Assembly: GCA_022841745.1 (NCBI GenBank)
Contig: JALHQW010000013.1
Location: forward strand, 62,001-126,000
Origin: Saprospiraceae bacterium
Lineage (GTDB): Bacteria; Bacteroidota; Bacteroidia; Chitinophagales; Saprospiraceae
Direction: 5' to 3'
DNA length: 64,000 bases
Shown here: positions 2,622 through 53,987 of the stretch, piece after piece
Layout of the letters: each line of letters starts with the position of its first letter
How positions within the stretch are numbered: position 1 is the stretch's first letter
Made by a program: the position numbers and the translations under genes
Notes under the pieces: model-generated
Told to the model about the DNA's origin: nothing
Seen by the model: only the letters and a program-made list of their open reading frames with translations
Database searches by the model: none

Positions 2622-2691
2622 CTTTGAGAGGCGGGGTTATCGAACCCCGCAGTTCCGGAACTACGGGGTTCAATAACCCCGCCTCTCAAAG
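2622..2691. repeat. 70-bp near-perfect palindrome
   Basis: Two 35-base arms meet without a loop and differ at only two paired positions. The outer arm reads CTTTGAGAGGCGGGGTTAT. It lies in the 182-bp gap between the UbiA-like gene and the dikinase gene. There is no T-tract on either strand, so a simple terminator is unlikely; a dispersed REP-like or other palindromic element is more plausible. Confidence 0.85.
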
Positions 2692-38760: not shown

Positions 38761-38786
38761 TCATCTGTTAATATCCTTGAGTCAAG

Positions 38787-38878
38787 GAAAAAATAAAAAG
38801 TTTAAAGGCAAAAGTTCGGAGCCTGCTGTAAAACCAATGCCCCCCACTTTTTCCTTTGTACTTTTTCCTTTGTACTTC
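38787..38878. repeat. intergenic imperfect hairpin, AAAGGAAAAAGT repeats
   Basis: Right arm contains ACTTTTTCCTTTGT twice in tandem (38846-38878). Left arm (38787-38816) is the imperfect complement (AAAAAATAAAAAGTTTAAAG). It lies just past the rpoC stop and matches the design of the other cluster hairpins. Confidence 0.55.
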
Positions 38879-43208: not shown

Positions 43209-43214
43209 ACCTTA

Positions 43215-43308
43215 TTGGTGATTGGTAATCGGTGATTAGTGATTGGTGATTGGTGATTGGGCTGGCCAATCACGAGTCACTAATCACTAATCACTAATCA
43301 CTAATTAT
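43215..43308. repeat. rpoB-rpoC intergenic hairpin of 7-bp repeats
   Basis: Left arm (43215-43260) is tandem GGTGATT/AGTGATT units. Right arm (43266-43308) is tandem ACTAATC units, complementary to the left. It fills almost the entire gap between rpoB and rpoC and reaches the rpoB stop codon. Confidence 0.85.
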
Positions 43309-46300
43309 TCAAACTTGATATCCAATGCGAGGCCACGCAATTCGTGGACGAGTACGTTGAACGACTCAGGGATGTTAGGCTCTGGTAGCACATCGCCCTT
43401 GACGATGGCCTCGTAAGCCTTGGCACGGCCTGAAATATCGTCCGACTTAACAGTGAGCAACTCCTGGAGGATGTGCGCTGCACCGAATGCTTCGAGTGCC
43501 CAAACCTCCATCTCACCAAAGCGCTGACCACCGAACTGCGCCTTACCACCCAACGGTTGCTGTGTGATAAGCGAGTATGGGCCGATGGAACGAGCGTGCA
43601 TCTTGTCGTCAACCATGTGGCTGAGTTTCAAGATGTAGATAACACCCACCGTGGCTTGCTGGTGGAAGCGGTCGCCCGTTTCACCGTCCGTTAGCCAAGT
43701 CTGGCCGAGGGAAGGCAGTCCCGATTCTTGGATGAACTGCTCAATTTCGTCACGGCTTGCACCGTCGAATATCGGGGATGCGAAGCGGACGCCCATTTTC
43801 TTGCCTGCCCAGCCAAGAACCGTTTCCAGGATTTGGCCGAGGTTCATCCTCGAAGGTACGCCCAATGGGTTGAGTACCACATCAACGGGTTCGCCATCTT
43901 CGGTGAACGGCATGTCCTCCAAGCGCACGATACGTGACACGATACCTTTGTTACCGTGACGGCCTGCGAGCTTGTCGCCCACTTTCAGCTTGCGCTTCTT
44001 GGCGATGTAAACCTTGGCGAGTTTCAATACGCCAGCAGGTAGCTCGTCGCCAATGCTGATGTTGAACTTCTCCCGCTTGTAACGGCCTACCTCTTCGTTC
44101 AGCTTGATGCTATAGTTGTGCAACAGCCTGGCAATCAGTTCGTTGATGGAATCGTCGTTCGTCCAGCCGCTGTAGTCGAGTTGGGTGAACTCCATGGTAC
44201 GGAGCAATTCCTGCGTGAACTTGGTTCCTTTCGGAATCATGCTCTCGCCATAGATGCTCTTCACGCCCTGCGATGTTTTGTCCTTCACCAAGACCAAGAG
44301 TTTGTCAATCAAAATGGTCTTCAACTCGTTGGTGGCAATGGCGTGGTTGTCGTCGAGCTTTTTCAGCACCTCGGTCTCCTGCGTCTTCTGCACGTTGCTC
44401 TTTTTCGCACGGGCGAACAATTGCTTGTCAATCACCACACCGCTGATGGATGGTGGCACTTTTAGCGAAGCATCTTTTACGTCGCCTGCCTTGTCGCCAA
44501 AGATGGCACGGAGCAGTTTCTCCTCCGGGGTCGGGTCAGTCTCGCCTTTTGGCGTGATCTTACCGATGAGGATGTCGCCTTCCTTTACCCATGCACCGAT
44601 ACGGATGATACCGTTCTCGTCAAGGTCTTTGGTGGCGTCTTCGCTCACGTTCGGGATGTCGTTGGTGAGTTCTTCCTCGCCCAGTTTAGTATCCCGCACG
44701 TCCATTTCAAAGGATTCGATGTGAACGCTGGTAAACACGTCTTCCCGAACAACCCGCTCGGACAACACTATGGCATCCTCAAAGTTGTAACCCTTCCAAG
44801 GCATGAAGGCCACTTTCAGGTTTTGGCCGAGTGCCAATTCGCCCTTGTCGGTAGCGTAGCCGTCGCAAAGGATTTCGCCTTTGTTCACCCGCTGGCCCTT
44901 GCGGACGATGGGTTTCAGGTTCACGCAAGTTGCCTGGTTGGTACGCAGAAACTTGGTGAGTTTATACGTCTTGCGGTTGTCTTCGAAAGAAACCAACTGC
45001 TCGTTCTCGGTGCGGTCGTAGCGGATGACGACTTCCGTTGCATCCACGTACTCCACTACGCCATCGCCTTCAGCGTTGATGAGCATCCGAGAGTCACGGG
45101 CTACTTTGCCTTCCAATCCCGTACCTACTATAGGGGCAGTTGGGCGGATGAGCGGCACGGCCTGGCGTTGCATGTTCGAGCCCATCAAGGCACGGTTGGC
45201 GTCATCGTTTTCGAGGAACGGAATCATGGAAGCAGATACGCCCACGATTTGGTTTGGCGCCACGTCCATGTACTCGATTTCTTCTGGCGAAAGCACCGGG
45301 AAATCGCCATGCTCCCTCGATTTGATTTTGTCCAAGAGGAAACGGCCCTCCCCATCGAATGGAGCATTGGCCTGGGCTACTTTCAGGTTGTCTTCTGCTT
45401 CGGCAGAAAGGTACTGGGCTGCGTTGTTGATGTCCACGACACCATCGTTCACCTTGCGGTAAGGTGTTTCGAGGAAGCCCATTTTATTCACTTTCGCATG
45501 TACACAGAGCGTAGAGATGAGACCGATGTTCGGGCCCTCTGGTGTCTCGATGGTACAAAGGCGACCGTAGTGGGAGTAGTGAACGTCACGTACCTCGAAG
45601 CCTGCACGCTCACGGCTGAGACCACCTGGACCGAGTGCCGAGATACGGCGCTTGTGGGTGATTTCGGACAGCGGATTCGTCTGGTCGAGGAACTGCGACA
45701 ACTGGCTGGTTCCGAAGAAAGAGTTGATAACAGAGGAAAGTGTCCTTGCGTTGATCAAGTCAATCGGCGTGAACACCTCATTGTCACGCACGTTCATGCG
45801 CTCCCGGATGGTACGTGCCATACGGGCAAGACCTACACCGAACTGGGCATAGAGCTGCTCGCCCACGGTGCGCACACGGCGGTTGCTAAGGTGGTCAATA
45901 TCGTCAATCTCCGCACGCTGGTTCATCAGGCGAACCAAGTATTTCACGATAGCAATGATGTCCTCCTTTGTTAAAACCAAGGTCTCAAGCGAGGTCTCCA
46001 TGCCCAACTTGCGGTTGATTTTGTACCGACCCACTTCGCCAAGGTTGTAGCGCTTGTCGGAGAAGAAAAGTTTGTCAATGATACCACGAGCCGTCTCGTC
46101 ATCTGGTGGCTCGGCGCCACGAAGCTGACGGTAGATGTAGTTGACGGCCTCCATTTCGGAGCTGGTCGGGTCTTTCTGGAGCGTATTGTAGATGATGGTG
46201 TAATCCTCTTCAATGTCCTCCCGCTGAAGGATGATGGTGGCAAGGCCAGAGTTGATGACCTGCTCGATATTGTCCTCATCCAGGATGACATCACGCTCAA

Positions 46301-47126
46301 GGATGATTTCGTTCCGTTCGATGGTTACGACCTCGCCCGTGTCCTCATCTACGAAGTCTTCCGTCCAAGAGCGGAGTACCCGTGCTGCGAGTTTGCGGCC
46401 AATGGCCGCTTCCACATTGGCCCTGGTGTTGGCGATTTCGTCGGCGAGGTTGAACAGGTCAAGGATGGCCTTGTCGTTGTCGAAGCCGATGGAACGGAGC
46501 AGCGTCGTTACCGGGAATTTCTTCTTCCGGTCAATGTAGGCATACATCACGTTGTTGATGTCCGTGGCGAACTCCATCCAAGCGCCCTTGAACGGGATAA
46601 CCCTTGCGGAGTAGATGGCCGTACCGTTCGGGTGGTAGTTTTGGCCAAAGAATACACCCGGCGAGCGGTGCAATTGCGACACTACCACTCGCTCTGCGCC
46701 ATTGATGACAAAGGTTCCCTTTGGCGTCATGTAGGGGATGTTCCCAAGGAACACGTCCTGCACGATGGTCTCGAAGTCCACGTGCTCAACGTCGTTGCAA
46801 GACAAGCGGAGCTTTGCTTTCAGGGGAACGCTATAGGTAAGGCCACGCTGCATACACTCCTCGATGGTGTAGCGGGGCGGATCCACGTAATAGTCAAGGA
46901 ATTCCAGAACGAAGATGTTCCGGGCATCGGTGATGGGGAAATTTTCTTTGAAAACCTTGTAAAGCCCTTCATTGCCCCTGTTTTCTGGTGTGGTTTCCAA
47001 TTGGAAGAATTCCTGGAAGGACTTCAATTGGATTTCCAGCAGGTCCGGGTGTTCGGAAGGCAATTTGATTTTGCCAAAGCTCAACCTACCTGTTTCAGTG
47101 ACACTGACATTTGGAAGTGATGCCAT
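43305..47126 (-). CDS. rpoB: RNA polymerase subunit beta
   Basis: 1273 residues from ATG 47126 ([20 protein letters not shown]). An in-frame ATG at 47177 adds 17 residues; related proteins begin close to the RLSFGK block, so I prefer the shorter form. Landmarks: [59 protein letters not shown], the rifampicin pocket ([39 protein letters not shown]), and the C-terminal [20 protein letters not shown]. Confidence 0.99.
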
Positions 47127-47614
47127 ATTTTTCGAAAAATTAATTTGTGATGGAGTTGCGGTAAAGGCCGCATTCAATTATACCGGATGGACAATGTGTA
47201 ATAATGAATGGCATATTTTTAGTTTACATGAACCCGATGCCCTTCGTTACCTTATCCGCTGTGGCTCAATAGAAAACTTCTCGTAACTACTTAGAAGGTT
47301 GCGGGAGGGGGCGTAAAAAATCATTTGATCACCCCTATCGCTTTTTCTGTTTTTGCTGGAGAAAATTTACAATTTGCCCCAAAAAAACCCTATTCCAAGT
47401 AGGTGCTAAATCTCGGCGAACTGCCTTCCTTTGGTAAGGAAGGTACAGCATAATAACACATGAAACGACAATAGGCTTAACCAATCTACCTGCGTAGATT
47501 AGTTAAGCCTCCTGTACTAAAAATGCTATGTAGCAAAAAAGTTGTAACTAAACATTGAATTGGATTAGTAAATAACTGCTTTGCTAATAGCCCGGTTTCT
47601 TACCGGGTATCAGC
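47127..47614. other. rplL-rpoB intergenic stretch, 488 bp
   Basis: No gene. Holds a short stem just after rplL (CCCGGTTTCTTACCGGG, ~47591-47607), a stem CCTTCC...GGAAGG (~47424-47445) and a longer hairpin at 47473-47510. A long leader before rpoB with structures of this kind suits attenuation between ribosomal protein and polymerase genes. Confidence 0.5.
47473..47510 (-). promoter_or_regulatory. hairpin in the rplL-rpoB leader, candidate attenuator
   Basis: AGGCTTAACCAATCTAC and GTAGATTAGTTAAGCCT pair with one mismatch around a four-base loop. No T-run on the minus strand, so not a plain terminator. The position between rplL and rpoB is where E. coli has an attenuator and an RNA-processing site; a role here is inference. 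Confidence 0.45.
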
Positions 47615-47992
47615 TTACTTCAGTTCCACTTGTGCGCCGGCATCTTCCAAAGTCGCTTTCAGCTTGTTAGCTTCGTCTTTGGAAACGCCCTGCTTCACTG
47701 GACCAGGAGCAGCATCTACCAATGCTTTTGCTTCTACGAGGCCCAAACCAAGGGCATCTTTAACGGCCTTTACTACCTGCAATTTGGCAGCACCAGCAGA
47801 AGTCAAAATCACATCAAATTCAGTTTGTTCAGCAACCGCAGCAGGACCTGCAGAAGCAGGGCCAGCAGCAACAGCTACTGCAGCAGCAGCAGGCTTAATG
47901 CCGTAATCATTTTCCATAATGCCTGTCAGTTCAGTCACCTCTTTAATGGTGAGGCCAACTAACTGTTCAGCAAGCGCTTTCAAATCAGCCAT
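47615..47992 (-). CDS. rplL: 50S ribosomal protein L7/L12
   Basis: 125 residues. An N-terminal dimerisation helix ([20 protein letters not shown]), an Ala/Gly hinge ([17 protein letters not shown]), and the C-terminal domain ([40 protein letters not shown]) are all present. It forms the ribosomal stalk that recruits translation GTPases, bound through L10, encoded just upstream. Confidence 0.98.
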
Positions 47993-48052
47993 TTTTTTTA
48001 CGTTTTAATTTTTTAAGAAACTATGTGCGAAGCTTGGAAGCCAAATTTAAGT

Positions 48053-48133
48053 CTGAAGGTATGAGGTATGGAGGTATGTTTGGGGCATTGGTATTTTCTT
48101 CCTGTCATACCTTCAAACCTTATACCTCCATAG
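48053..48133. repeat. rplJ-rplL intergenic hairpin, GGTATG repeats
   Basis: Left arm 48053-48080 (GAAGGTATGAGGTATGGAGG...) and right arm 48103-48133 (CATACCTTCAAACCTTATAC...) are complementary strings of GGTATG-type words. Confidence 0.75.
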
Positions 48134-48137
48134 CTTT

Positions 48138-48671
48138 TTACCCCCTTTCTTCGAGCGCCTTCAACAAGCCCATGACGTTCTGTCCACCAGAACCGAGCTG
48201 AGAAAGGAGGCTCGACATTGGCGAGTTGAGCAGGCCGATGAGTTCGCCCAGCAAATCCTCTTTGGATTTGAGGTTGACGAGTGCATCGAGCTGGTCGTCG
48301 CCGACGTAGATAGCGGAATCAATATACGCAGCCTTGATCTGCGGCTTTTCCGAATCCTTTTCCTTGCGGAATGCCTTGATAATTTTTGCTGGCGCATTGG
48401 CTACATCCGTAAAGATGATAGCAGTTGGGCCATGCAACGTGTCGTAAAGACCCTCGAAGTTGGTGCTGTCAGTGGATGCAGCTTCGAGTGCCTTGCGGGT
48501 GAGGGTGTTTTTAACCACCGTCATGGTCATGCCCTGCTCGTTCAGTTGGCGGCGGAGCACGTTTACTTGAGCGACTGTCATCGCAGAAGAGTCTGCGAGG
48601 TAGAAAAAGGAGGAATTGGAGATTTTCTCCTTGAGTTCCTCAATCGCTGCCGTTTTTTCTTCCCTGGTCAT
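48138..48671 (-). CDS. rplJ: 50S ribosomal protein L10
   Basis: 177 residues. Opens MTREEKTAAIEELKEKISNS and contains FYLADSSAMTVAQVNVLRRQ and GPTAIIFTDVANAPAKIIKA, standard for L10. Its C-terminal helix (LLSQLGSGGQNVMGLLKALE) binds L7/L12 dimers. In E. coli L10-L7/L12 represses its own mRNA leader; I see no clear equivalent. Confidence 0.98.
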   Translation of the reverse strand: MTREEKTAAIEELKEKISNSSFFYLADSSAMTVAQVNVLRRQLNEQGMTMTVVKNTLTRKALEAASTDSTNFEGLYDTLHGPTAIIFTDVANAPAKIIKAFRKEKDSEKPQIKAAYIDSAIYVGDDQLDALVNLKSKEDLLGELIGLLNSPMSSLLSQLGSGGQNVMGLLKALEERG

Positions 48672-48736
48672 TTTATATAATGATTGTATGAACGCCGAGC
48701 CGGTTGGTCAACAGGTTTTGGCCTTCACTTTAGGAT

Positions 48737-49429
48737 TTAACGAATTGATTTCGAGTCAACTTTGATGCCCGGGCTCATGGTGCTGGCTACCGTGATGGAT
48801 TTCAGGTAAATACCTTTGGCAGAGGACGGCTTCATCTTGATAAGGGTGTGAATAAGTTCGTTGGCGTTGTCGACCAGCTTGTTGGGTGTGAACGACACAC
48901 GGCCTACCGAAGAGTGGATGATACCGTACTTGTCTACGCGGAATGCAACCTTACCGCCCTTCACATCGGTGATGGCAGTAGCCAAGTCCATGGTCACCGT
49001 ACCCGTTTTAGGGTTGGGCATAAGGCCACGTGGGCCGAGCACACGGGCTACTTTACCAACCTGTGCCATGACAGTCGGCGTTGCAACAGCTACGTCGAAG
49101 TCCGTCCAGCCACCCAAAATTTTTGTGAGCAATTCGTCGAGACCGACATGGTCTGCGCCAGCGTCTTTGGCTTCCTGCTCCTTGTCGGGCGTACAGAAAA
49201 CGAGCACACGCTTGGTTTTACCAGTACCGTGAGGAAGGTTGGCGGTGCCCCTTATGGCTTGATCAGCCTTACGGGGGTCAATGCCGAGGCGGACGTGGAT
49301 GTCCACAGAAGCATCGAACTTTGTCGTGTTCACATCTTTGACGATGGCCATGGCCTCATCCAGTGTGTGGAGCTTTGCGCTGTCAATTTTTTTATCAACA
49401 GCTTTTCTCTTTTTAGGAACTCTTGACAT
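48737..49429 (-). CDS. rplA: 50S ribosomal protein L1
   Basis: 230 residues of the usual length. Typical blocks: KKIDSAKLHTLDEAMAIVKD, DIHVRLGIDPRKADQAIRGT, NLPHGTGKTKRVLVF, LGPRGLMPNPKTGTVT, DKYGIIHSSVGRVSF. Binds 23S rRNA at the L1 stalk and often represses the L11-L1 transcript. Part of rplKAJL. Confidence 0.98.
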   Translation of the reverse strand: MSRVPKKRKAVDKKIDSAKLHTLDEAMAIVKDVNTTKFDASVDIHVRLGIDPRKADQAIRGTANLPHGTGKTKRVLVFCTPDKEQEAKDAGADHVGLDELLTKILGGWTDFDVAVATPTVMAQVGKVARVLGPRGLMPNPKTGTVTMDLATAITDVKGGKVAFRVDKYGIIHSSVGRVSFTPNKLVDNANELIHTLIKMKPSSAKGIYLKSITVASTMSPGIKVDSKSIR

Positions 49430-49497
49430 TTTATAAAAAAAATTGTGAGGTAATTAGCGCCTTTTCAGTCTTTACTGCCAAGGCTCCCTACTTGAAA

Positions 49498-49574
49498 GGA
49501 TTGAAGGGGTGAAGGATTGAAGGATTGAATACCAAGGGTAAATTCAATCCTTATATCATTCAATCATTCAATCC
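49498..49574. repeat. rplK-rplA intergenic hairpin, GGATTGAA repeats
   Basis: Two 33-base arms (49498-49530 and 49542-49574) pair with six mismatches around an 11-base loop. Each arm is made of GGATTGAA-type words. It ends one base before the rplK stop codon. Confidence 0.9.
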
Positions 49575-50021
49575 TTATGATTCTGCCGGGGGCGTACCGC
49601 CTTCCACCTTCAAGCCCATGCTGCGGGCCGTGCCTGCCACCATCCGCATAGCGGAATCAACGGTGAAGCAGTTGAGGTCGGACATTTTGTCTTCTGCGAT
49701 GGTACGGACTTGATCCCAAGTCACTTTACCTACCTTGTTGCGGTTTGGTTCAGGAGAACCACTCTTCAACTTGGCTATTTCCTTAAGCTGGATAGCGGCA
49801 GGAGCAGTCTTGATGACGTACTCAAAGGTCTTGTCCTTATAGACGGAGATTTGAACTGGCAATATCTTGCCCATCCTATCCTGCGTATCGGCGTTGAAAC
49901 GCTTGCAGAACTCCATGATATTGACACCCTTAGAACCGAGTGCCGGGCCAATAGGCGGTGAAGGATTGGCTTGGCCACCTTTCGCCTGTAGTTTGATGAG
50001 AAATTCGACTTCTTTTGCCAT
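49575..50021 (-). CDS. rplK: 50S ribosomal protein L11
   Basis: 148 residues. Opens [20 protein letters not shown] and [20 protein letters not shown], with the C-terminal rRNA-binding part ([29 protein letters not shown]). Binds the GTPase-associated region of 23S rRNA. First of rplKAJL, downstream of nusG. Confidence 0.98.
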
Positions 50022-50025
50022 TGTT

Positions 50026-50103
50026 GTGACTGGTGATTAGTGACTCATGACTCGTGACTCGCTGCGGGCTTCCCAATCACGAGTTACGAATCAGGAGTTA
50101 CCA
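50026..50103. repeat. nusG-rplK intergenic hairpin, GTGACT-type repeats
   Basis: Left arm (50026-50061) strings GTGACT/GTGATT words. Right arm (50074-50103) is the imperfect complement (CAATCACGAGTTACGAATCA...). Fills the gap between the two genes. Confidence 0.7.
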
Positions 50104-50652
50104 CTACTGTGTTTTTTCAACTTGCATGAAGTTCAGTTCGACCTCGGTGCCACGACCGAATATCTTCACGATTACCTTCAGCTTTTTCTTTTCTTCATTG
50201 ACCTCTTGCACATCGCCAATGAAATCGGCGAACGGGCCATCTATGATTTTCACCGTCTCCCCTACGAGGAACGGCTCCAACATTTGCTCACCTGCGTCCT
50301 TCGACTCGTCCACCTTGCCCAGCAAGCGGTTAGCCTCGGATGTTAGCATGGGTATTGGGGTGTTCTTTCCAAGAAAATGGATGACGTTCTGAACGTTGGC
50401 TATCGCCTGCACAACTTCGCCCGAAAATTTGGTGGGTTCAGCCTCTATCAAAATATAGCCCGGAAGGATGTTCCGCTCTGAAATCACCTTCTTGCCGGTC
50501 CTAATCTTATAGACCTTCTCGGTAGGCACGATGACTTGGAAAATGAAGGTATCCCAGCCGTTGCGCTTTATTTCAAGCTCAACACGCTCTTTGATTTTCT
50601 TCTCCTTGCCACTGATTACCCGGAGGGAGTACCATTTTTTATCTTCAGTCAT
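50104..50652 (-). CDS. nusG: transcription termination/antitermination factor NusG
   Basis: 182 residues. NGN domain (KKWYSLRVISGKEKKIKERV ... ERNILPGYILIEAEPTKFSG) and a C-terminal KOW motif (FLVGETVKIIDGPFADFIGD). Binds RNA polymerase and couples transcription with Rho or the ribosome. Directly downstream of secE. Confidence 0.98.
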   Translation of the reverse strand: MTEDKKWYSLRVISGKEKKIKERVELEIKRNGWDTFIFQVIVPTEKVYKIRTGKKVISERNILPGYILIEAEPTKFSGEVVQAIANVQNVIHFLGKNTPIPMLTSEANRLLGKVDESKDAGEQMLEPFLVGETVKIIDGPFADFIGDVQEVNEEKKKLKVIVKIFGRGTEVELNFMQVEKTQ

Positions 50653-50704
50653 GAAGTGTTCGTTTGGCTAATTCCTCAATAGAATAAAACCGGCTACGAT
50701 TTGA

Positions 50705-50902
50705 TTAGCCTCTCATCTTGTAGATAAGGCCATCCATCAGACCCTTGGAAGCAGAGTCCATGATGAAAACACAAAGCGTAAACAGCAACAATCCAATCAA
50801 AACCACAACGGTGGTGCTTTGGAGGTTCGGCCAAGTTGGCCAAGTCACCTTCGTCATCAATTCGTTATAGCTTTCTTGAAAGTAAAGTTTTATCTTATCC
50901 AT
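50705..50902 (-). CDS. secE: preprotein translocase subunit SecE
   Basis: 65 residues, short single-span form: an amphipathic helix (KLYFQESYNELMTKVTWPTW) and one transmembrane helix (TTVVVLIGLLLFTLCVFIMD). Stabilises SecY in the Sec translocon. Position between tRNA-Trp and nusG is the usual one. Confidence 0.97.
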   Translation of the reverse strand: MDKIKLYFQESYNELMTKVTWPTWPNLQSTTVVVLIGLLLFTLCVFIMDSASKGLMDGLIYKMRG

Positions 50903-50986
50903 TTTGAACGGTAAATGGTTTGAAGGCGGCTGGCGACTTTCTGCTAAAGCAATTGGTCAACCGTTGGCCAAACAACGTTAACATGG

Positions 50987-51059
50987 CACGGGCGGAAGGA
51001 CTCGAACCCTCAGCCTACGGTTTTGGAGACCGTCGCTCTACCACTTGAGCTACGCCCGT
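50987..51059 (-). tRNA. tRNA-Trp (CCA)
   Basis: 73 nt cloverleaf. Acceptor ACGGGCG / CGCCCGT, G discriminator, anticodon loop CTCCAAA within GACGGTCTCCAAAACCGTAGG's stem, T-arm GGGTTCGAGTCC. CCA tail not encoded. Confidence 0.97.
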
Positions 51060-51067
51060 ATTCAATC

Positions 51068-51144
51068 TGTTTGACTTGTTTGATGGGTTTGATTTGCGTT
51101 TAACAATTCAAACGTTCAAAACTCATCAAACAATTTCAAACAAC
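51068..51144. repeat. tuf-tRNA-Trp intergenic hairpin, GTTTGA repeats
   Basis: Left arm GTTTGACTTGTTTGATGGGT... (51068-51103), right arm ATTCAAACGTTCAAAACTCA... (51106-51144), imperfectly complementary, each of TTTGA/TCAAA words. Confidence 0.75.
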
Positions 51145-51162
51145 TAAATTCTATAAGTGCAG

Positions 51163-51197
51163 AAAAGTTAAGCGCCCATTTACAGGGCACTTAACTT
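51163..51197 (-). terminator. tuf intrinsic terminator
   Basis: Minus strand AAAGTTAAGTGCCC / GGGCGCTTAACTTTT, stem with one mismatch, 7-base loop, T-run. About 40 bp after the tuf stop. Confidence 0.85.
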
Positions 51198-51233
51198 TCT
51201 TTATTTCAAAGTAAACTGGGAGTGCCTCCCTGA

Positions 51234-52430
51234 TTACTGAATAATCTCAGTCACCTGACCTGCGCCTACGGTACGGCCACCTTCACGGATAGCGAAGCGG
51301 AGGCCTTTTTCCATAGCGATTGGGTTGATGAGGTTTACTTCCAGCGAAACGTTGTCGCCAGGCATTACCATTTCAACGCCATCAGGCAGTTTGCAATCGC
51401 CAGTTACATCCGTTGTACGGAAGTAGAATTGTGGGCGGTAGCCGTTGAAGAATGGCGTGTGACGGCCACCTTCGTCTTTGCCAAGTACGTAAACCTCGCA
51501 CTTGAACTTCAAGTGAGGCTTTACAGAGCCAGGCTTGCAGATAACCATACCACGGCGGATGGCATCCTTGTCAATACCACGGAGAAGAAGACCAGCGTTG
51601 TCGCCAGCTTCACCACGGTCGAGCAGCTTGCGGAACATCTCCACACCAGTCACTGTAGAAGTCAGCGGCTTTTGGTCAGCAGCCATCATACCGATGATTT
51701 CAACTGGATCGCCCACGTTGATGACACCACGCTCAATACGGCCAGTGGCAACAGTACCACGACCAGTAATTGAGAATACGTCCTCGATTGGCATTAAGAA
51801 ATCCTTATCAACGGCACGAACTGGCTCAGGAATCCACGAGTCAACGGCATCCATGAGTGCCTGGATTTGCTTCACGCCCTCTGGGTCGCCGGAAAGGCCC
51901 TTGATGGCAGAACCCGCTATAACTGGGGTCTTGTTGCCATCGAACTGGTAGGCGGCCAAGAGGTCACGCATTTCCATTTCAACAAGCTCCAACATTTCTG
52001 GGTCGTCAACTAGGTCAACTTTGTTCATGAAAACAACCAACGCAGGTACACCTACCTGACGAGCGAGCAGGATGTGCTCACGGGTTTGTGGCATCGGGCC
52101 GTCGGTAGCAGCCACCACGATGATGGCGCCGTCCATCTGGGCAGCACCCGTTACCATGTTCTTCACATAGTCGGCGTGGCCTGGGCAGTCAACGTGCGCA
52201 TAGTGACGCTTTACGGTCTCATACTCAACGTGTGCAGTGTTGATGGTGATACCGCGCTCTTTTTCTTCTGGAGCGGCGTCAATTGAATCGTAATCTTTCT
52301 TTTGAGCAAGACCTTGTTCCGCTAGTACATACGTGATGGCAGCGGTCAGTGTAGTCTTGCCGTGGTCAACGTGGCCGATCGTACCGATATTTACGTGCGG
52401 CTTGTTCCTCTTAAATTGTTCTTTTGCCAT
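51234..52430 (-). CDS. tuf: elongation factor Tu
   Basis: 398 residues. GTP-binding motifs GHVDHGKT (19-26), DCPGHAD, NKVD and the switch region [14 protein letters not shown] are intact. Domains 2 and 3 are complete through [11 protein letters not shown] at the C-terminus. Delivers aminoacyl-tRNA to the ribosome. Sits between tRNA-Thr(GGT) and tRNA-Trp, as in the E. coli thrT-tufB arrangement. Confidence 0.99.
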
Positions 52431-52528
52431 CGGAGAATTTAGTTTAAAAAATTATTGAGTTAAGGAGTTTCTGATTCTGCAAACATGCCGTAGGGATCAA
52501 TTCATCCGTGATAAGGCTGCTTACTTTG

Positions 52529-52600
<72 letters not shown>

Positions 52601-52703
52601 TTAACCGAGTTGGTTTTATGCTAAAATGGCTAAATGGTTTCAAAACAATGGCTGTTTTTTACCCACAGGGCCATTCAAGCAAGCAACTCAACCTGGTCTT
52701 TAG

Positions 52704-52776
52704 AGCGGGAGACGAGACTCGAACCCGCGACCCTCAGCTTGGAAGGCTGATGCTCTACCAACTGAGCTACTCCCGC
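52704..52776 (-). tRNA. tRNA-Gly (TCC)
   Basis: 73 nt. Acceptor GCGGGAG / CTCCCGC, anticodon loop CTTCCAA in a TCAGC/GCTGA stem, T-arm GCGGGTTCGAGTCTCG. Confidence 0.95.
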
Positions 52777-52790
52777 ATGATATTTCAAGG

Positions 52791-52869
52791 TTTGAAGGAT
52801 TGAATGATGAAAAGGATTGAAGAATCATTGGGCTACCCCTTCAATCCTTCAATTCTTCAATTCTTCAAG
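52791..52869. repeat. tRNA-Tyr/tRNA-Gly intergenic hairpin, GGATTGAA repeats
   Basis: Left arm TTGAAGGATTGAATGATGAA... and right arm TTCAATCCTTCAATTCTTCA... pair imperfectly. The word is the same as in the rplK-rplA hairpin. Confidence 0.8.
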
Positions 52870-52872
52870 TAG

Positions 52873-52956
52873 TGGGGGTGATAGGATTCGAACCTATTCA
52901 GCAGTAAAGCAACAGATTTACAGTCTGCCCCGTCTCTCCAACTTCGGCGCACCCCC
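52873..52956 (-). tRNA. tRNA-Tyr (GTA)
   Basis: 84 nt, class II with a long variable arm. Acceptor GGGGGTG / CACCCCC, anticodon loop CTGTAAA. Confidence 0.95.
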
Positions 52957-52960
52957 TTGT

Positions 52961-53080
52961 GATTTCGGATTTTCGATTGCGGATTTCAAGCTCAGTAACT
53001 TCTCTTTTTGAGGAGAAAAACACAGCGCCTGGGCGAATATCGCCCCAAATCCAAAATCCGCAATCCCCATTCCGTAATCG
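52961..53080. repeat. tRNA-Thr/tRNA-Tyr intergenic hairpin, GGATTT repeats
   Basis: Left arm 52961-52990 (GATTTCGGATTTTCGATTGC) and right arm 53046-53080 (CCAAATCCAAAATCCGCAAT) are near-complements; the loop is about 55 bases. Confidence 0.75.
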
Positions 53081-53084
53081 AATG

Positions 53085-53157
53085 AGCCAGTAGAGGGACT
53101 CGAACCCCCGACCAGCTGATTACAAATCAGCTGCTCTACCAACTGAGCTACACTGGC
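53085..53157 (-). tRNA. tRNA-Thr (TGT)
   Basis: 73 nt. Acceptor GCCAGTG / TACTGGC, anticodon loop TTTGTAA in a GCTGA/TCAGC stem, T-arm GGGGGTTCGAGTCCC. First of four tRNAs before tuf. Confidence 0.95.
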
Positions 53158-53397
53158 TTATGAATGGAAATTTATCCGAATAAATTCCCGTGCTTACAAT
53201 GAACTTTTTGGCCAGAAGCCCCGCTTTTTCAAAAGCGCCCGCAAAGATAGCGCTTTGGAGAAAAAAAGAAAATTTTGTGCTTTCTTTTTGTTCTTTTTTT
53301 TTGGAGGCGCAAAAGTAAGCGCTCTGTCTTGAATTGCAAACCCAAGAACAGGTTGATTTTAAAAAAAAGTTCGTTGAAAGGTAAGATTGGGCAAAAA

Positions 53398-53440
53398 AAA
53401 TTGGGCTTGCCCCCGAAATCGGATTGGCAAGCCCAATTTT
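53398..53440 (-). terminator. hpf intrinsic terminator
   Basis: Minus strand AAAATTGGGCTTGCC / GGCAAGCCCAATTTT, perfect 15-bp stem, followed by T-run. It lies about 17 bp after the hpf stop. Confidence 0.9.
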
Positions 53441-53456
53441 AACCCTGTTTTAGGTA

Positions 53457-53765
53457 TTATGCTGGCGTCTGCTCTCGCAGCTTGTCTTTATATTTCGTCA
53501 ACTGTCTTCGGAGATTGTCCACGGCGCCGTCTATTGATTGCTCGAAAGTTTTATTTGTTTCTTTGGCGAAAAGGCTCTGACCCGGAACTTGGAGTTGAAT
53601 CTCAGCCACCTTGTCCTTTACTTGGCCGGAGTTTTCGAGCCTGAGCTTAATCTCGACATTGATGATCCGGTCAAAATAGGTCGTCAGTTTCTCCATTTTC
53701 TTGGCGATGTAATCATGCAACTTCTGGTCAGCTTTGAACTGAACCGCTTCAGTGTGAATTTTCAT
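53457..53765 (-). CDS. hpf: ribosome hibernation factor, short HPF/RaiA type
   Basis: 102 residues from ATG 53765 (MKIHTEAVQFKADQKLHDYI). The beta-alpha-beta-beta-beta-alpha pattern includes FDRIINVEIKLRLENSGQVK and ends YKDKLREQTPA, with no C-terminal dimerisation domain, so this is the short form. It binds the 30S subunit in slow growth. The in-frame ATG at 53888 runs through the hairpin region and was rejected. Name hpf versus raiA is uncertain. Confidence 0.88.
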   Translation of the reverse strand: MKIHTEAVQFKADQKLHDYIAKKMEKLTTYFDRIINVEIKLRLENSGQVKDKVAEIQLQVPGQSLFAKETNKTFEQSIDGAVDNLRRQLTKYKDKLREQTPA

Positions 53766-53853
53766 AGATATCAAAATTGATAAGTTAAACATTGTGGTTC
53801 CGTTGCAGCCCATTTTGCTTCGGCACAGGGTAGCACCGATGGGCCTGTATTTA

Positions 53854-53987
53854 AGTTCGCAGTTCGACAGTTGGCAGTTGGCGGTCATTTTGCAGTTTTT
53901 CAGCCTTGAAGTCTTTTTGCGTTCATATCAGCACTGACTAAACAACCTTGAACTGACTGCTAACTGCCAACTGGCGAACTGCGGACT
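53854..53987. repeat. hpf-xerC intergenic hairpin, CAGTTGGC repeats
   Basis: Two 34-base arms (53854-53887 and 53954-53987) match with five differences: AGTTCGCAGTTCGACAGTTG... against the complement of ...CAACTGGCGAACTGCGGACT. Loop ~66 bases. The right arm overlaps the xerC stop codon. Confidence 0.88.

What the first reader, a model, noticed from the sequence alone, without database searches (positions are those of the whole stretch)
43209..53987. Intergenic hairpins built from different short repeats throughout the RNAP/ribosomal/tRNA cluster
At least seven gaps here (rpoB-rpoC, rplJ-rplL, rplK-rplA, nusG-rplK, tuf-tRNA-Trp, two tRNA-tRNA gaps, hpf-xerC) hold a long imperfect hairpin. Each arm is a string of 6-8 bp degenerate words, and the word changes from gap to gap (GATTAGT, GGTATG, GGATTGAA, GTGACT, GTTTGA, GGATTT, CAGTTGGC). 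Several end exactly at a stop codon. A conserved form with unconserved sequence suggests the fold, or a process that makes it, is what matters: RNA processing, mRNA stabilisation, or a replication-slippage/template-switch mechanism. I know of no named element with this property.
Basis: partly seen in the sequence, partly recalled or inferred. Interest (0 to 1): 0.75.

Follow-up and report, generated by a model that had tools for sequence, protein, structure and literature searches.

The report
Word-repeat DNA hairpins behind genes
Many gaps between genes in this Saprospiraceae bacterium hold long hairpins whose two arms are each a string of one short repeated word; the word differs between gaps and between related species, and the evidence leans towards a DNA-copying process rather than an RNA signal.

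Summary
All eight named gaps hold a hairpin whose arms repeat a 6-8 bp word (RNA fold z -4.4 to -10.0; 0 of 100 shuffles as good). It is genome-wide: 119 such elements in 1.664 Mb sampled of 8.43 Mb, 0 in shuffled sequence.

They fall into word families shared by many loci, sit just behind stop codons (64 of 89 within 25 nt) and have a G-rich, C-poor 5' arm (82 of 89). Of 229 tandem word arrays 87 have only an inverted partner nearby and 7 only a direct one. In sister genomes a gap may hold another word, a plain hairpin or none.

The pairing does not look kept as RNA. On the transcribed strand word hairpins show G.U 52 and A.C 67; non-word hairpins of the operon gaps show 136 and 53. They lack T-tracts (0 of 54), REP tags and, except for one MITE family, detectable target duplications.

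Best reading: fast-turning, dispersed palindromes with tandem-word arms, kept symmetric at the DNA level and tolerated behind genes. How words spread is unknown. Closest in form: LIMP palindromes of an algal mitochondrion.

The parts
43214..43305 (.). rpoB-rpoC word hairpin (GTGATTA/GTGATTG, period 7); arms 43214-43253 and 43266-43305; overlaps the end of rpoB by 1 nt
   Evidence: orthologous gap
48054..48130 (.). rplJ-rplL word hairpin (GGTATGA, period 7-8); arms 48054-48078 and 48106-48130
   Evidence: G007, G001 and G006 hold a GGGATGA-word hairpin here
49496..49576 (.). rplK-rplA word hairpin (GGATTGAA, period 8); arms 49496-49530 and 49542-49576; overlaps the end of rplK by 2 nt
50031..50103 (.). 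nusG-rplK word hairpin (GTGACTC/GTGATTA, period 7); arms 50031-50057 and 50077-50103, 74% complementary; abuts the nusG stop
   Evidence: another word or a plain gap in the 12 sister genomes
51060..51150 (.). tuf-tRNA-Trp word hairpin (GTTTGA); core arms 51076-51090 and 51119-51133
   Evidence: a separate ordinary hairpin lies between it and tuf
52781..52871 (.). tRNA-Gly/tRNA-Tyr word hairpin (GGATTGAA, period 8); arms 52781-52815 and 52837-52871
   Evidence: same gap GTGAGAG in G008/G009 and ATGATGA in G006
52961..53079 (.). tRNA-Tyr/tRNA-Thr word hairpin (GGATTTC/GGATTGC, period 7); arms 52961-52986 and 53054-53079
53854..53987 (.). hpf-xerC word hairpin (CAGTTGG, period 7); arms 53854-53890 and 53951-53987; not found in the 8 other genus genomes in which this gap was read
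38784..38877 (.). further word hairpin downstream of rpoC, outside the reported range (AAAGTAC family); arms 38784-38815 and 38846-38877

Best explanation
These are dispersed, fast-turning intergenic palindromes whose two arms are inverted tandem arrays of one 7-8 bp word. Shown: they are families (one word, many loci); about half of the tandem word arrays have an inverted partner nearby and very few only a direct one; they lie mostly directly behind genes; the 5' arm is G-rich and C-poor on both strands; the resident word differs between species at one gap; the arms match within an element better than the average between elements or between species; the mismatches carry no RNA-strand signature. 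Inferred: the arms are made and kept alike by a DNA process (fold-back or template-switch copying of one arm from the other, with slippage adding and homogenising word units), words spread within a genome by copying from one hairpin to another through a route not identified here, and purifying selection leaves them mostly in the 3' flanks of genes. Where a gap needs a hairpin anyway, as rpoB-rpoC may, a word hairpin can stand in for a plain one.
For: Detection: 119 elements in 1.664 Mb against 0 in shuffles; periods 7 (45) and 8 (41) of the 98 with z>=2. Families: the GTGATT 20-mer with up to 2 mismatches has 154 overlapping matches, reversed control 28; the strict GGATTGA hairpin 19 overlapping matches, reversed control 0; word groups. 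Inverted form: 118 of 229 intergenic tandem arrays have an inverted partner within 1.5 kb, against 1 of 229 for random stretches; inverted only 87, direct only 7, both 27, neither 108. Place: median 4 nt from a facing stop codon, 64 of 89 within 25 nt; of 59 in codirectional gaps 42 nearer the stop and 15 nearer the start. Polarity: 82 of 89 with G>C in the 5' arm, other intergenic inverted repeats 80 of 136; 18 of 19 convergent, 11 of 11 divergent, 53 of 59 codirectional; 50 of 54 in other genomes. Turnover at one gap. Concerted arms: within-element identity 0.88 against 0.79 to others of the same word, 53 of 61 elements above their own between-mean; rpoB-rpoC arm-arm mismatch 0.07-0.26 within a species (four genomes) against 0.19-0.56 for the same arm between non-sister species. 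DNA rather than RNA: G.U 52 and A.C 67 in 70 codirectional word elements, G.U 33 and A.C 48 in 50 word hairpins of the operon gaps, against 136 and 53 in 209 non-word hairpins of those gaps.
Against: No copying machinery was identified, and no excess of target duplications was found outside one MITE family. 108 of 229 tandem arrays have neither kind of partner, so the palindrome is not obligatory. Against the best other member of the same word, an element's own arm is at least as good in only 30 of 61, and in the GGATTGAA group it beats even the mean in only 3 of 6. The strand test's control is strong in the operon gaps but weak in the window's own genome: its non-word codirectional inverted repeats show 50:36 (19 elements against 15, n 83). 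In the four-genome rpoB-rpoC alignment the mismatches are G.U 13 to A.C 1, which is RNA-like, although that structure was chosen with RNA energies. Hairpins at rpoB-rpoC and between tRNA-Tyr and tRNA-Gly persist over the genus (12 of 12 and 9 of 10), which suggests a use. Arms are somewhat less self-complementary than unit-permuted controls (mean p 0.79), which selection for clean folding could also give.
Confidence: 0.5

Rival explanations
1. RNA elements: the hairpins are selected in the transcript as processing sites (RNase III-like), 3'-end protectors or intercistronic dampers, and any sequence that folds will do.
For: Position just behind stop codons and between tRNAs; rpoB-rpoC folded (z<-2) in 12 of 12 genus genomes and 25 of 37 other Saprospiraceae whatever the word; in four genomes 7 of 27 pairs with two-sided change and 94.4% of cells paired, 0 of 500 shuffles as high on both (43 of 500 on the number of pair types); G.U 13 to A.C 1 in that alignment.
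Against: No G.U excess on the mRNA strand for word hairpins in the wider counts (52:67 and 33:48), while non-word hairpins of the operon gaps have it (136:53; 88 elements against 26). Sense folds are not better than antisense folds (lower in 27, higher in 39 of 70). Word hairpins also fill convergent and divergent gaps. Several gaps have them in one or few species.
Confidence: 0.22
2. Birth in place only: each hairpin arises from local sequence by slippage and fold-back template switching, with no movement between loci.
For: Inverted pairs far outnumber direct ones; arms mirrored; words one substitution apart, as at rplJ-rplL where G007 has GGGATGA and the window GGTATGA.
Against: The same words, some with shared irregular spacing, recur at many unlinked loci of one genome. 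Two strict word hairpins were found only in this genome, or in it and one other, of 296 phylum genomes (none of them from the same genus). The sister pair G008/G009 (95% identical in four genes) has a whole word hairpin against a plain gap at nusG-rplK.
Confidence: 0.15
3. They are MITEs: non-autonomous DNA transposons whose terminal inverted repeats happen to be periodic.
For: One family with GGGTTTTC words (ends CAATGGTTCGTGAAG) has internal homology and flanking matches of at least 5 nt in the six copies aligned, with 134 end matches in the genome at up to 1 mismatch.
Against: Of 84 elements 10 have a flanking match of 5 nt or more, six of them this family; about 4 are expected by chance. 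In the GGATTGAA and GATTTAAG families the loops are mostly unrelated. Arm lengths vary widely.
Confidence: 0.08
4. They are REPs or REPINs moved by the genome's RAYT (Y1) transposases.
For: Nine Y1_Tnp matches in the genome; the position behind genes is that of REPs (PMC3733652, section 15 read).
Against: Within 1.5 kb of eight of the nine Y1 matches the palindromes are mainly non-word ones; word hairpins (z>=2) lie about 0.7 and 1.4 kb from two, and one periodic composite of a REP-like palindrome about 0.2 kb from a third. GTAG or CGTC stands at the ends of 5 of 89 word elements, against 245 of 1780 random places. REPs have a fixed family sequence.
Confidence: 0.04

Closest known systems
LIMP, the Lobosphaera incisa mitochondrial palindrome (PMC4524435; passages seen)
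   Same: Intergenic palindrome of (word)n - loop - (complementary word)n; unit number varies; one constant polarity; unequal arms and decayed remnants reported.
   Different: One pentanucleotide (AACCA), an invariant 7-nt loop and 19 copies in an organelle. Here there are many 7-8 bp words, mostly variable loops, arms with degenerate units, the opposite polarity (G-rich 5' arm), and a bacterial chromosome.
REP palindromes (PMC3733652; abstract and section 15 read)
   Same: Small dispersed palindromes close behind stop codons, mainly between codirectional and convergent genes, sometimes supplying the stop codon.
   Different: Those REPs carry a GTAG or CGTC tag and, for GTAG types, are linked to RAYTs; here no tag excess (5 of 89) and no word hairpin abutting the Y1 genes examined.
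Heptamer direct repeats: TAACTGA of Beggiatoaceae, Cyanobacteria and some Bacteroidetes (PMC4679880; passages and section 12 seen)
   Same: Intergenic tandem 7-mers, sometimes mixed with other 7-mers, present in one relative and not in another.
   Different: Described there as direct repeats, mostly just upstream of start codons, with one indirect set among 170 in the main genome; here inverted pairs prevail and lie behind genes.
MITEs
   Same: One family here has terminal inverted repeats, a homologous interior and 5-nt flanking duplications.
   Different: No excess of duplications outside that family, and the GGATTGAA and GATTTAAG families have mostly unrelated loops.
Palindromic microsatellite repeats of Fusarium mitochondria (PMC7218506; title and passages only)
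   Same: Named there as a mobile palindromic repeat.
   Different: Details were not read; organelle of a fungus.

Membership tests
Intrinsic (Rho-independent) terminator | T-tract directly after the stem on the transcribed strand | tested here: not met
   0 of 54 codirectional word elements have at least 6 T in the next 8 nt, mean T fraction 0.28; non-word inverted repeats 4 of 83, 0.34
REP (GTAG/CGTC superfamilies) | GTAG or CGTC tag at one end of the palindrome | tested here: not met
   5 of 89 word elements, 14 of 136 other inverted repeats, 245 of 1780 random places
REP / REPIN | RAYT gene flanked by the same palindromes | tested here: not met
   8 of 9 Y1_Tnp matches of the genome examined within 1.5 kb: mainly non-word palindromes; word hairpins near two but not abutting
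REP / REPIN | location in 3' flanks of genes | tested here: met
   median 4 nt from a facing stop, 64 of 89 within 25 nt
MITE | target-site duplication | tested here: not met
   10 of 84 elements have a flanking match of 5 nt or more, six of them copies of the CAATGGTTCG family; about 4 expected. Duplications of 2-4 nt could not be told from chance
MITE | homologous interior between copies | tested here: inconclusive
   met for the CAATGGTTCG and CAGT families, mostly not for GGATTGAA and GATTTAAG; the other families were not aligned
LIMP-like palindrome | both arms are tandem copies of one short word, inverted | tested here: met
   98 elements with same-period arms at z>=2, 0 in shuffles; inverted only 87, direct only 7 of 229 arrays
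LIMP-like palindrome | invariant loop | tested here: not met
   loops vary in sequence and length within word families
Selected RNA hairpin | G.U tolerated over A.C on the transcribed strand | tested here: not met
   52:67 in G000 and 33:48 in operon gaps, against 136:53 for non-word hairpins there; the control is weaker in G000 itself, 50:36
Known RNA families (Rfam 15) | match at gathering score | tested here: not met
   only the five tRNAs of the window match

The most novel reading that the evidence does not exclude
A class of bacterial intergenic repeat defined by architecture and not by sequence: inverted tandem arrays of a 7-8 bp word, G-rich arm first, maintained by continual hairpin-templated copying at the DNA level. 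The word at a locus can drift, be homogenised over both arms, or be overwritten by a word from another hairpin of the genome, so that the form persists while the sequence is rewritten, even between rpoB and rpoC.
Probability: 0.3. Interest if true: 0.75.

Novelty: new variant of a known kind. Interest (0 to 1): 0.56.

Why it matters
If right, essential operons of a bacterial group carry hairpins whose sequence is rewritten quickly while the fold stays, which looks like RNA covariation but is not kept as RNA. That is a warning for covariation-based RNA discovery. It also gives a natural system in which template switching at hairpins, concerted evolution of inverted arms, and the exchange of one hairpin for another at fixed loci can be followed between close species.

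Tried and rejected
Intrinsic terminators: rejected, no T-tract. All-frame stop-codon cassettes: rejected; frames with a stop 1.48 per 5' arm against 1.64 in unit-permuted controls. Self-priming of the G/T/A arm through G.T pairs as the reason for the G-rich 5' arm: not supported; arms are less self-complementary than permuted ones. RAYT-moved REPs: not supported. General transposition with target duplication: only one family. Loss of the hairpin nuclease SbcCD in hairpin-rich genomes: not supported; SbcD is over the family cut-off in 11 of 14 genomes, G000, G001, G008 and G013 included, and the one genome without any match is G002, where I found no word hairpin in 69 kb. Each gap edge carrying its own independent array: weak; the far edge of single-array gaps has period z>=2.5 in 10% of 60 against 3.9% of 1036 edges, polarity 35 of 60. 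Upstream-of-start G avoidance may explain part of the polarity, since array-free gaps show some, but not the convergent gaps (18 of 19). The within/between arm comparison mixed several words in one cluster of 63 and was replaced by that (61 elements in nine word groups; groups under three members dropped). The G.U excess in the four-genome rpoB-rpoC alignment is biased by an RNA-energy structure; the strand-neutral count at that site over all species read is 11:16 for word and 4:10 for non-word hairpins.

The library holds open-licence PMC papers only, and most listed papers were not opened.

Full report
What the window is. The proteins around the finding match Saprospiraceae (Bacteroidota): NusG is 95-89% identical in the five nearest named records, labelled Saprospiraceae, Saprospirales or Bacteroidetes. 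The window is contig 13, 62001-126000, of an unnamed 8.43-Mb, 178-contig genome. Fourteen genomes of its genus are held, itself included; 13 have a NusG match, and those 13 are compared below.

The observation. I folded the 15 gaps of the cluster in transcript sense against dinucleotide shuffles. Inverted and direct repeats are as described. In a sample of 20 contigs x 80 kb plus the window (1.664 Mb) a detector of inverted repeats with the same arm periodicity on both sides finds 119 elements at z>=1.5 and 98 at z>=2, against 0 and 0 in shuffled sequence; periods of the 98 are 7 (45), 8 (41), and 6, 9 or 10 (12). The detector finds four of the eight named hairpins, so these counts are low.

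Families, place, polarity. Of 117 elements with genes on both sides, 107 are intergenic. Words recur: GTGATT, GGATTGAA, GGTATG, ATGGCTT, GACGGTG, CAGTTGG, AAAGTAC, GATTTAAG, GGGATGA, GATTGCG, GGGTTTTC and others. For 89 elements (z>=2, period 7-10, at most 60% in a gene; up to six MITE copies are among them) the median distance to a facing stop codon is 4 nt and 64 lie within 25 nt of one. Elements against gaps of at least 50 nt: convergent 19 to 133, codirectional 59 to 595, divergent 11 to 188. Placed at random in the same gaps the median would be 8 nt. The 5' arm has more G than C in 82 of 89, against 80 of 136 other intergenic inverted repeats. It holds in convergent gaps (18 of 19) and in other genomes (50 of 54). 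Since a palindrome reads the same on both strands, this is a property of the element and not of the transcript.

Palindrome or tandem array? There are 229 intergenic period-7/8 arrays; 118 have an inverted partner within 1.5 kb, against 1 of 229 for random stretches. Counting partners at least 12 nt away, 87 have an inverted one only, 7 a direct one only, 27 both and 108 neither. So the inverted form is strongly favoured but not obligatory.

Sister genomes. At rpoB-rpoC the GTGATT word is in WIN, G007, G005, G009, G001, G008, G012 and G004, a GGGAATT word in G006, and plain hairpins in G002, G011 and G013; the fold is strong in 12 of 12 (G003 lacks the gap). At nusG-rplK the window has GTGACTC/GTGATT, G007, G001 and G008 an ATGATGA word, and the other nine a plain gap, several with a CCAG..CTGG hairpin; G009 is 95% identical to G008 in four neighbouring genes and has the plain form. 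At rplJ-rplL the hairpin changes between the rplJ stop and a conserved downstream stretch. At hpf-xerC only the window has it (1 of 9). Among the 80 named loci (1.23 Mb) 30 elements reach z>=2, 19 of them outside the genus loci L001-L005 and with other words, some of period 6. Per Mb at z>=2, from small samples except G000: G000 59, G001 114 (8 in 70 kb), G008 87 (6 in 69 kb), G013 75 (9 in 120 kb), G005 28 (3 in 106 kb), G011 23 (1 in 44 kb), G002 0 (in 69 kb); the cluster locus is counted for G001, G008, G011 and G002 but not for G005 and G013. In 10 kb each from eight genomes outside the genus only G305 had any (2), and its stretch was chosen for a known hit. Strict GTGATT hairpins occur in 1 of 296 phylum genomes and strict GGATTGA hairpins in 2 of 296; the 296 held no other genome of the genus.

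RNA or DNA? A hairpin kept as RNA tolerates G.U on the transcribed strand but not A.C; one kept as DNA treats them alike. Over the operon gaps of all species read, 209 non-word hairpins show G.U 136 and A.C 53 (88 elements against 26), so the test works here; without the tuf site it is 86 and 42 in 136. Word hairpins of the same gaps show 33 and 48 in 50, and 70 codirectional word hairpins of the window's genome 52 and 67. A Fisher test of 52:67 against 86:42 gives p 0.0003 by cells and 0.004 by elements. Cells and elements are not independent and the two sets come from different gaps, so the p-values are rough. In the window's own genome the non-word control is weak, 50:36 in 83. Still, arms covary: in the clean rpoB-rpoC alignment of four genomes, two of them sisters, 7 of 27 pairs changed on both sides against 2.3 in shuffles, and arm-arm mismatch within species is 0.07-0.26 where the same arm differs by 0.19-0.56 between non-sister species. 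Covariation without an RNA strand bias points to copying between the arms. In that one alignment the mismatches are G.U 13 to A.C 1, but the structure was chosen with RNA energies; counted strand-neutrally over all species read, the site gives 11:16 for word and 4:10 for non-word hairpins.

What it is not. No T-tract (0 of 54), no excess of stop codons, no excess of target duplications except in one MITE family, no REP tag, no RAYT abutting in eight of nine cases examined, no Rfam family at gathering score in the window, no loss of SbcD in the hairpin-rich genomes.

Judgement. The best-supported account is dispersed palindromic repeats with tandem-word arms, symmetric through a DNA process, tolerated behind genes, occasionally standing in for a needed hairpin. 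How words move between loci is not known. LIMPs in an algal mitochondrion (PMC4524435, passages) are the nearest in build, REPs (PMC3733652, abstract and section 15) in placement, TAACTGA heptamers (PMC4679880, passages and one section) in unit. A 2026 survey of perfect inverted repeats (PMC13155455, passages) reports a general bacterial peak of inverted repeats behind stop codons and attributes it to termination; the elements here share the place but not the T-tract.

Noticed in passing
G000 C4 31198, C8 57873, C11 85807, C3 46167, C2 67197, C10 38042 (contig coordinates; the six aligned copies): A MITE of about 165 bp with ends CAATGGTTCGTGAAG, homologous interior and flanking matches of at least 5 nt in the six aligned copies; 134 end matches in the whole genome at up to 1 mismatch.
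   Followed up: partly
window 2622-2691; L254, L256, L257, L260: Separate REP-like palindromes with fixed sequence (GAGAGG..GGTTATCAAACC and others); some lie beside Y1/RAYT transposase genes.
   Followed up: partly
window 51160-51205 (tuf-tRNA-Trp gap) and 47450-47520 (rplL-rpoB gap): Ordinary hairpins in these gaps (AAGTTAAGTGCCCC..GGGGCGCTTAACTT; GGCTTAACTAATC..GATTGGTTAAGCC) recur in relatives; non-word hairpins at the two sites show a strong G.U over A.C excess on the mRNA strand (50:11 in 73 and 44:8 in 64), so they look kept as RNA.
   Followed up: partly
window 49432-49495 (rplK-rplA gap): A conserved stretch like GTAGGGAGCCTTGG..AAAG..GGCGCTAATTACCTCA just upstream of rplA in the six genus genomes; perhaps an rplA leader or L1 site (recalled, not tested).
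   Followed up: no
window 47993-48045 (rplJ-rplL gap): A GGCTTCCAAG-like motif upstream of rplL, downstream of the exchanged hairpins, in the genus genomes listed.
   Followed up: no
G000 C2 50632-50744 and 62946-63043, C12 83922-84050 (contig coordinates): One-sided word arrays of about 100-130 bp (GGATTGAA, AGGTATG) without an inverted partner within 250 nt by the test.
   Followed up: no
L222 (G013 C3:60001-80000): Six word hairpins in 20 kb; two of the words (TTAATGG, GGTTGAG) each occur at two places in it.
   Followed up: no
L045 5636-5823: A long imperfect palindrome with 90-nt arms that strings several different words in succession.
   Followed up: no
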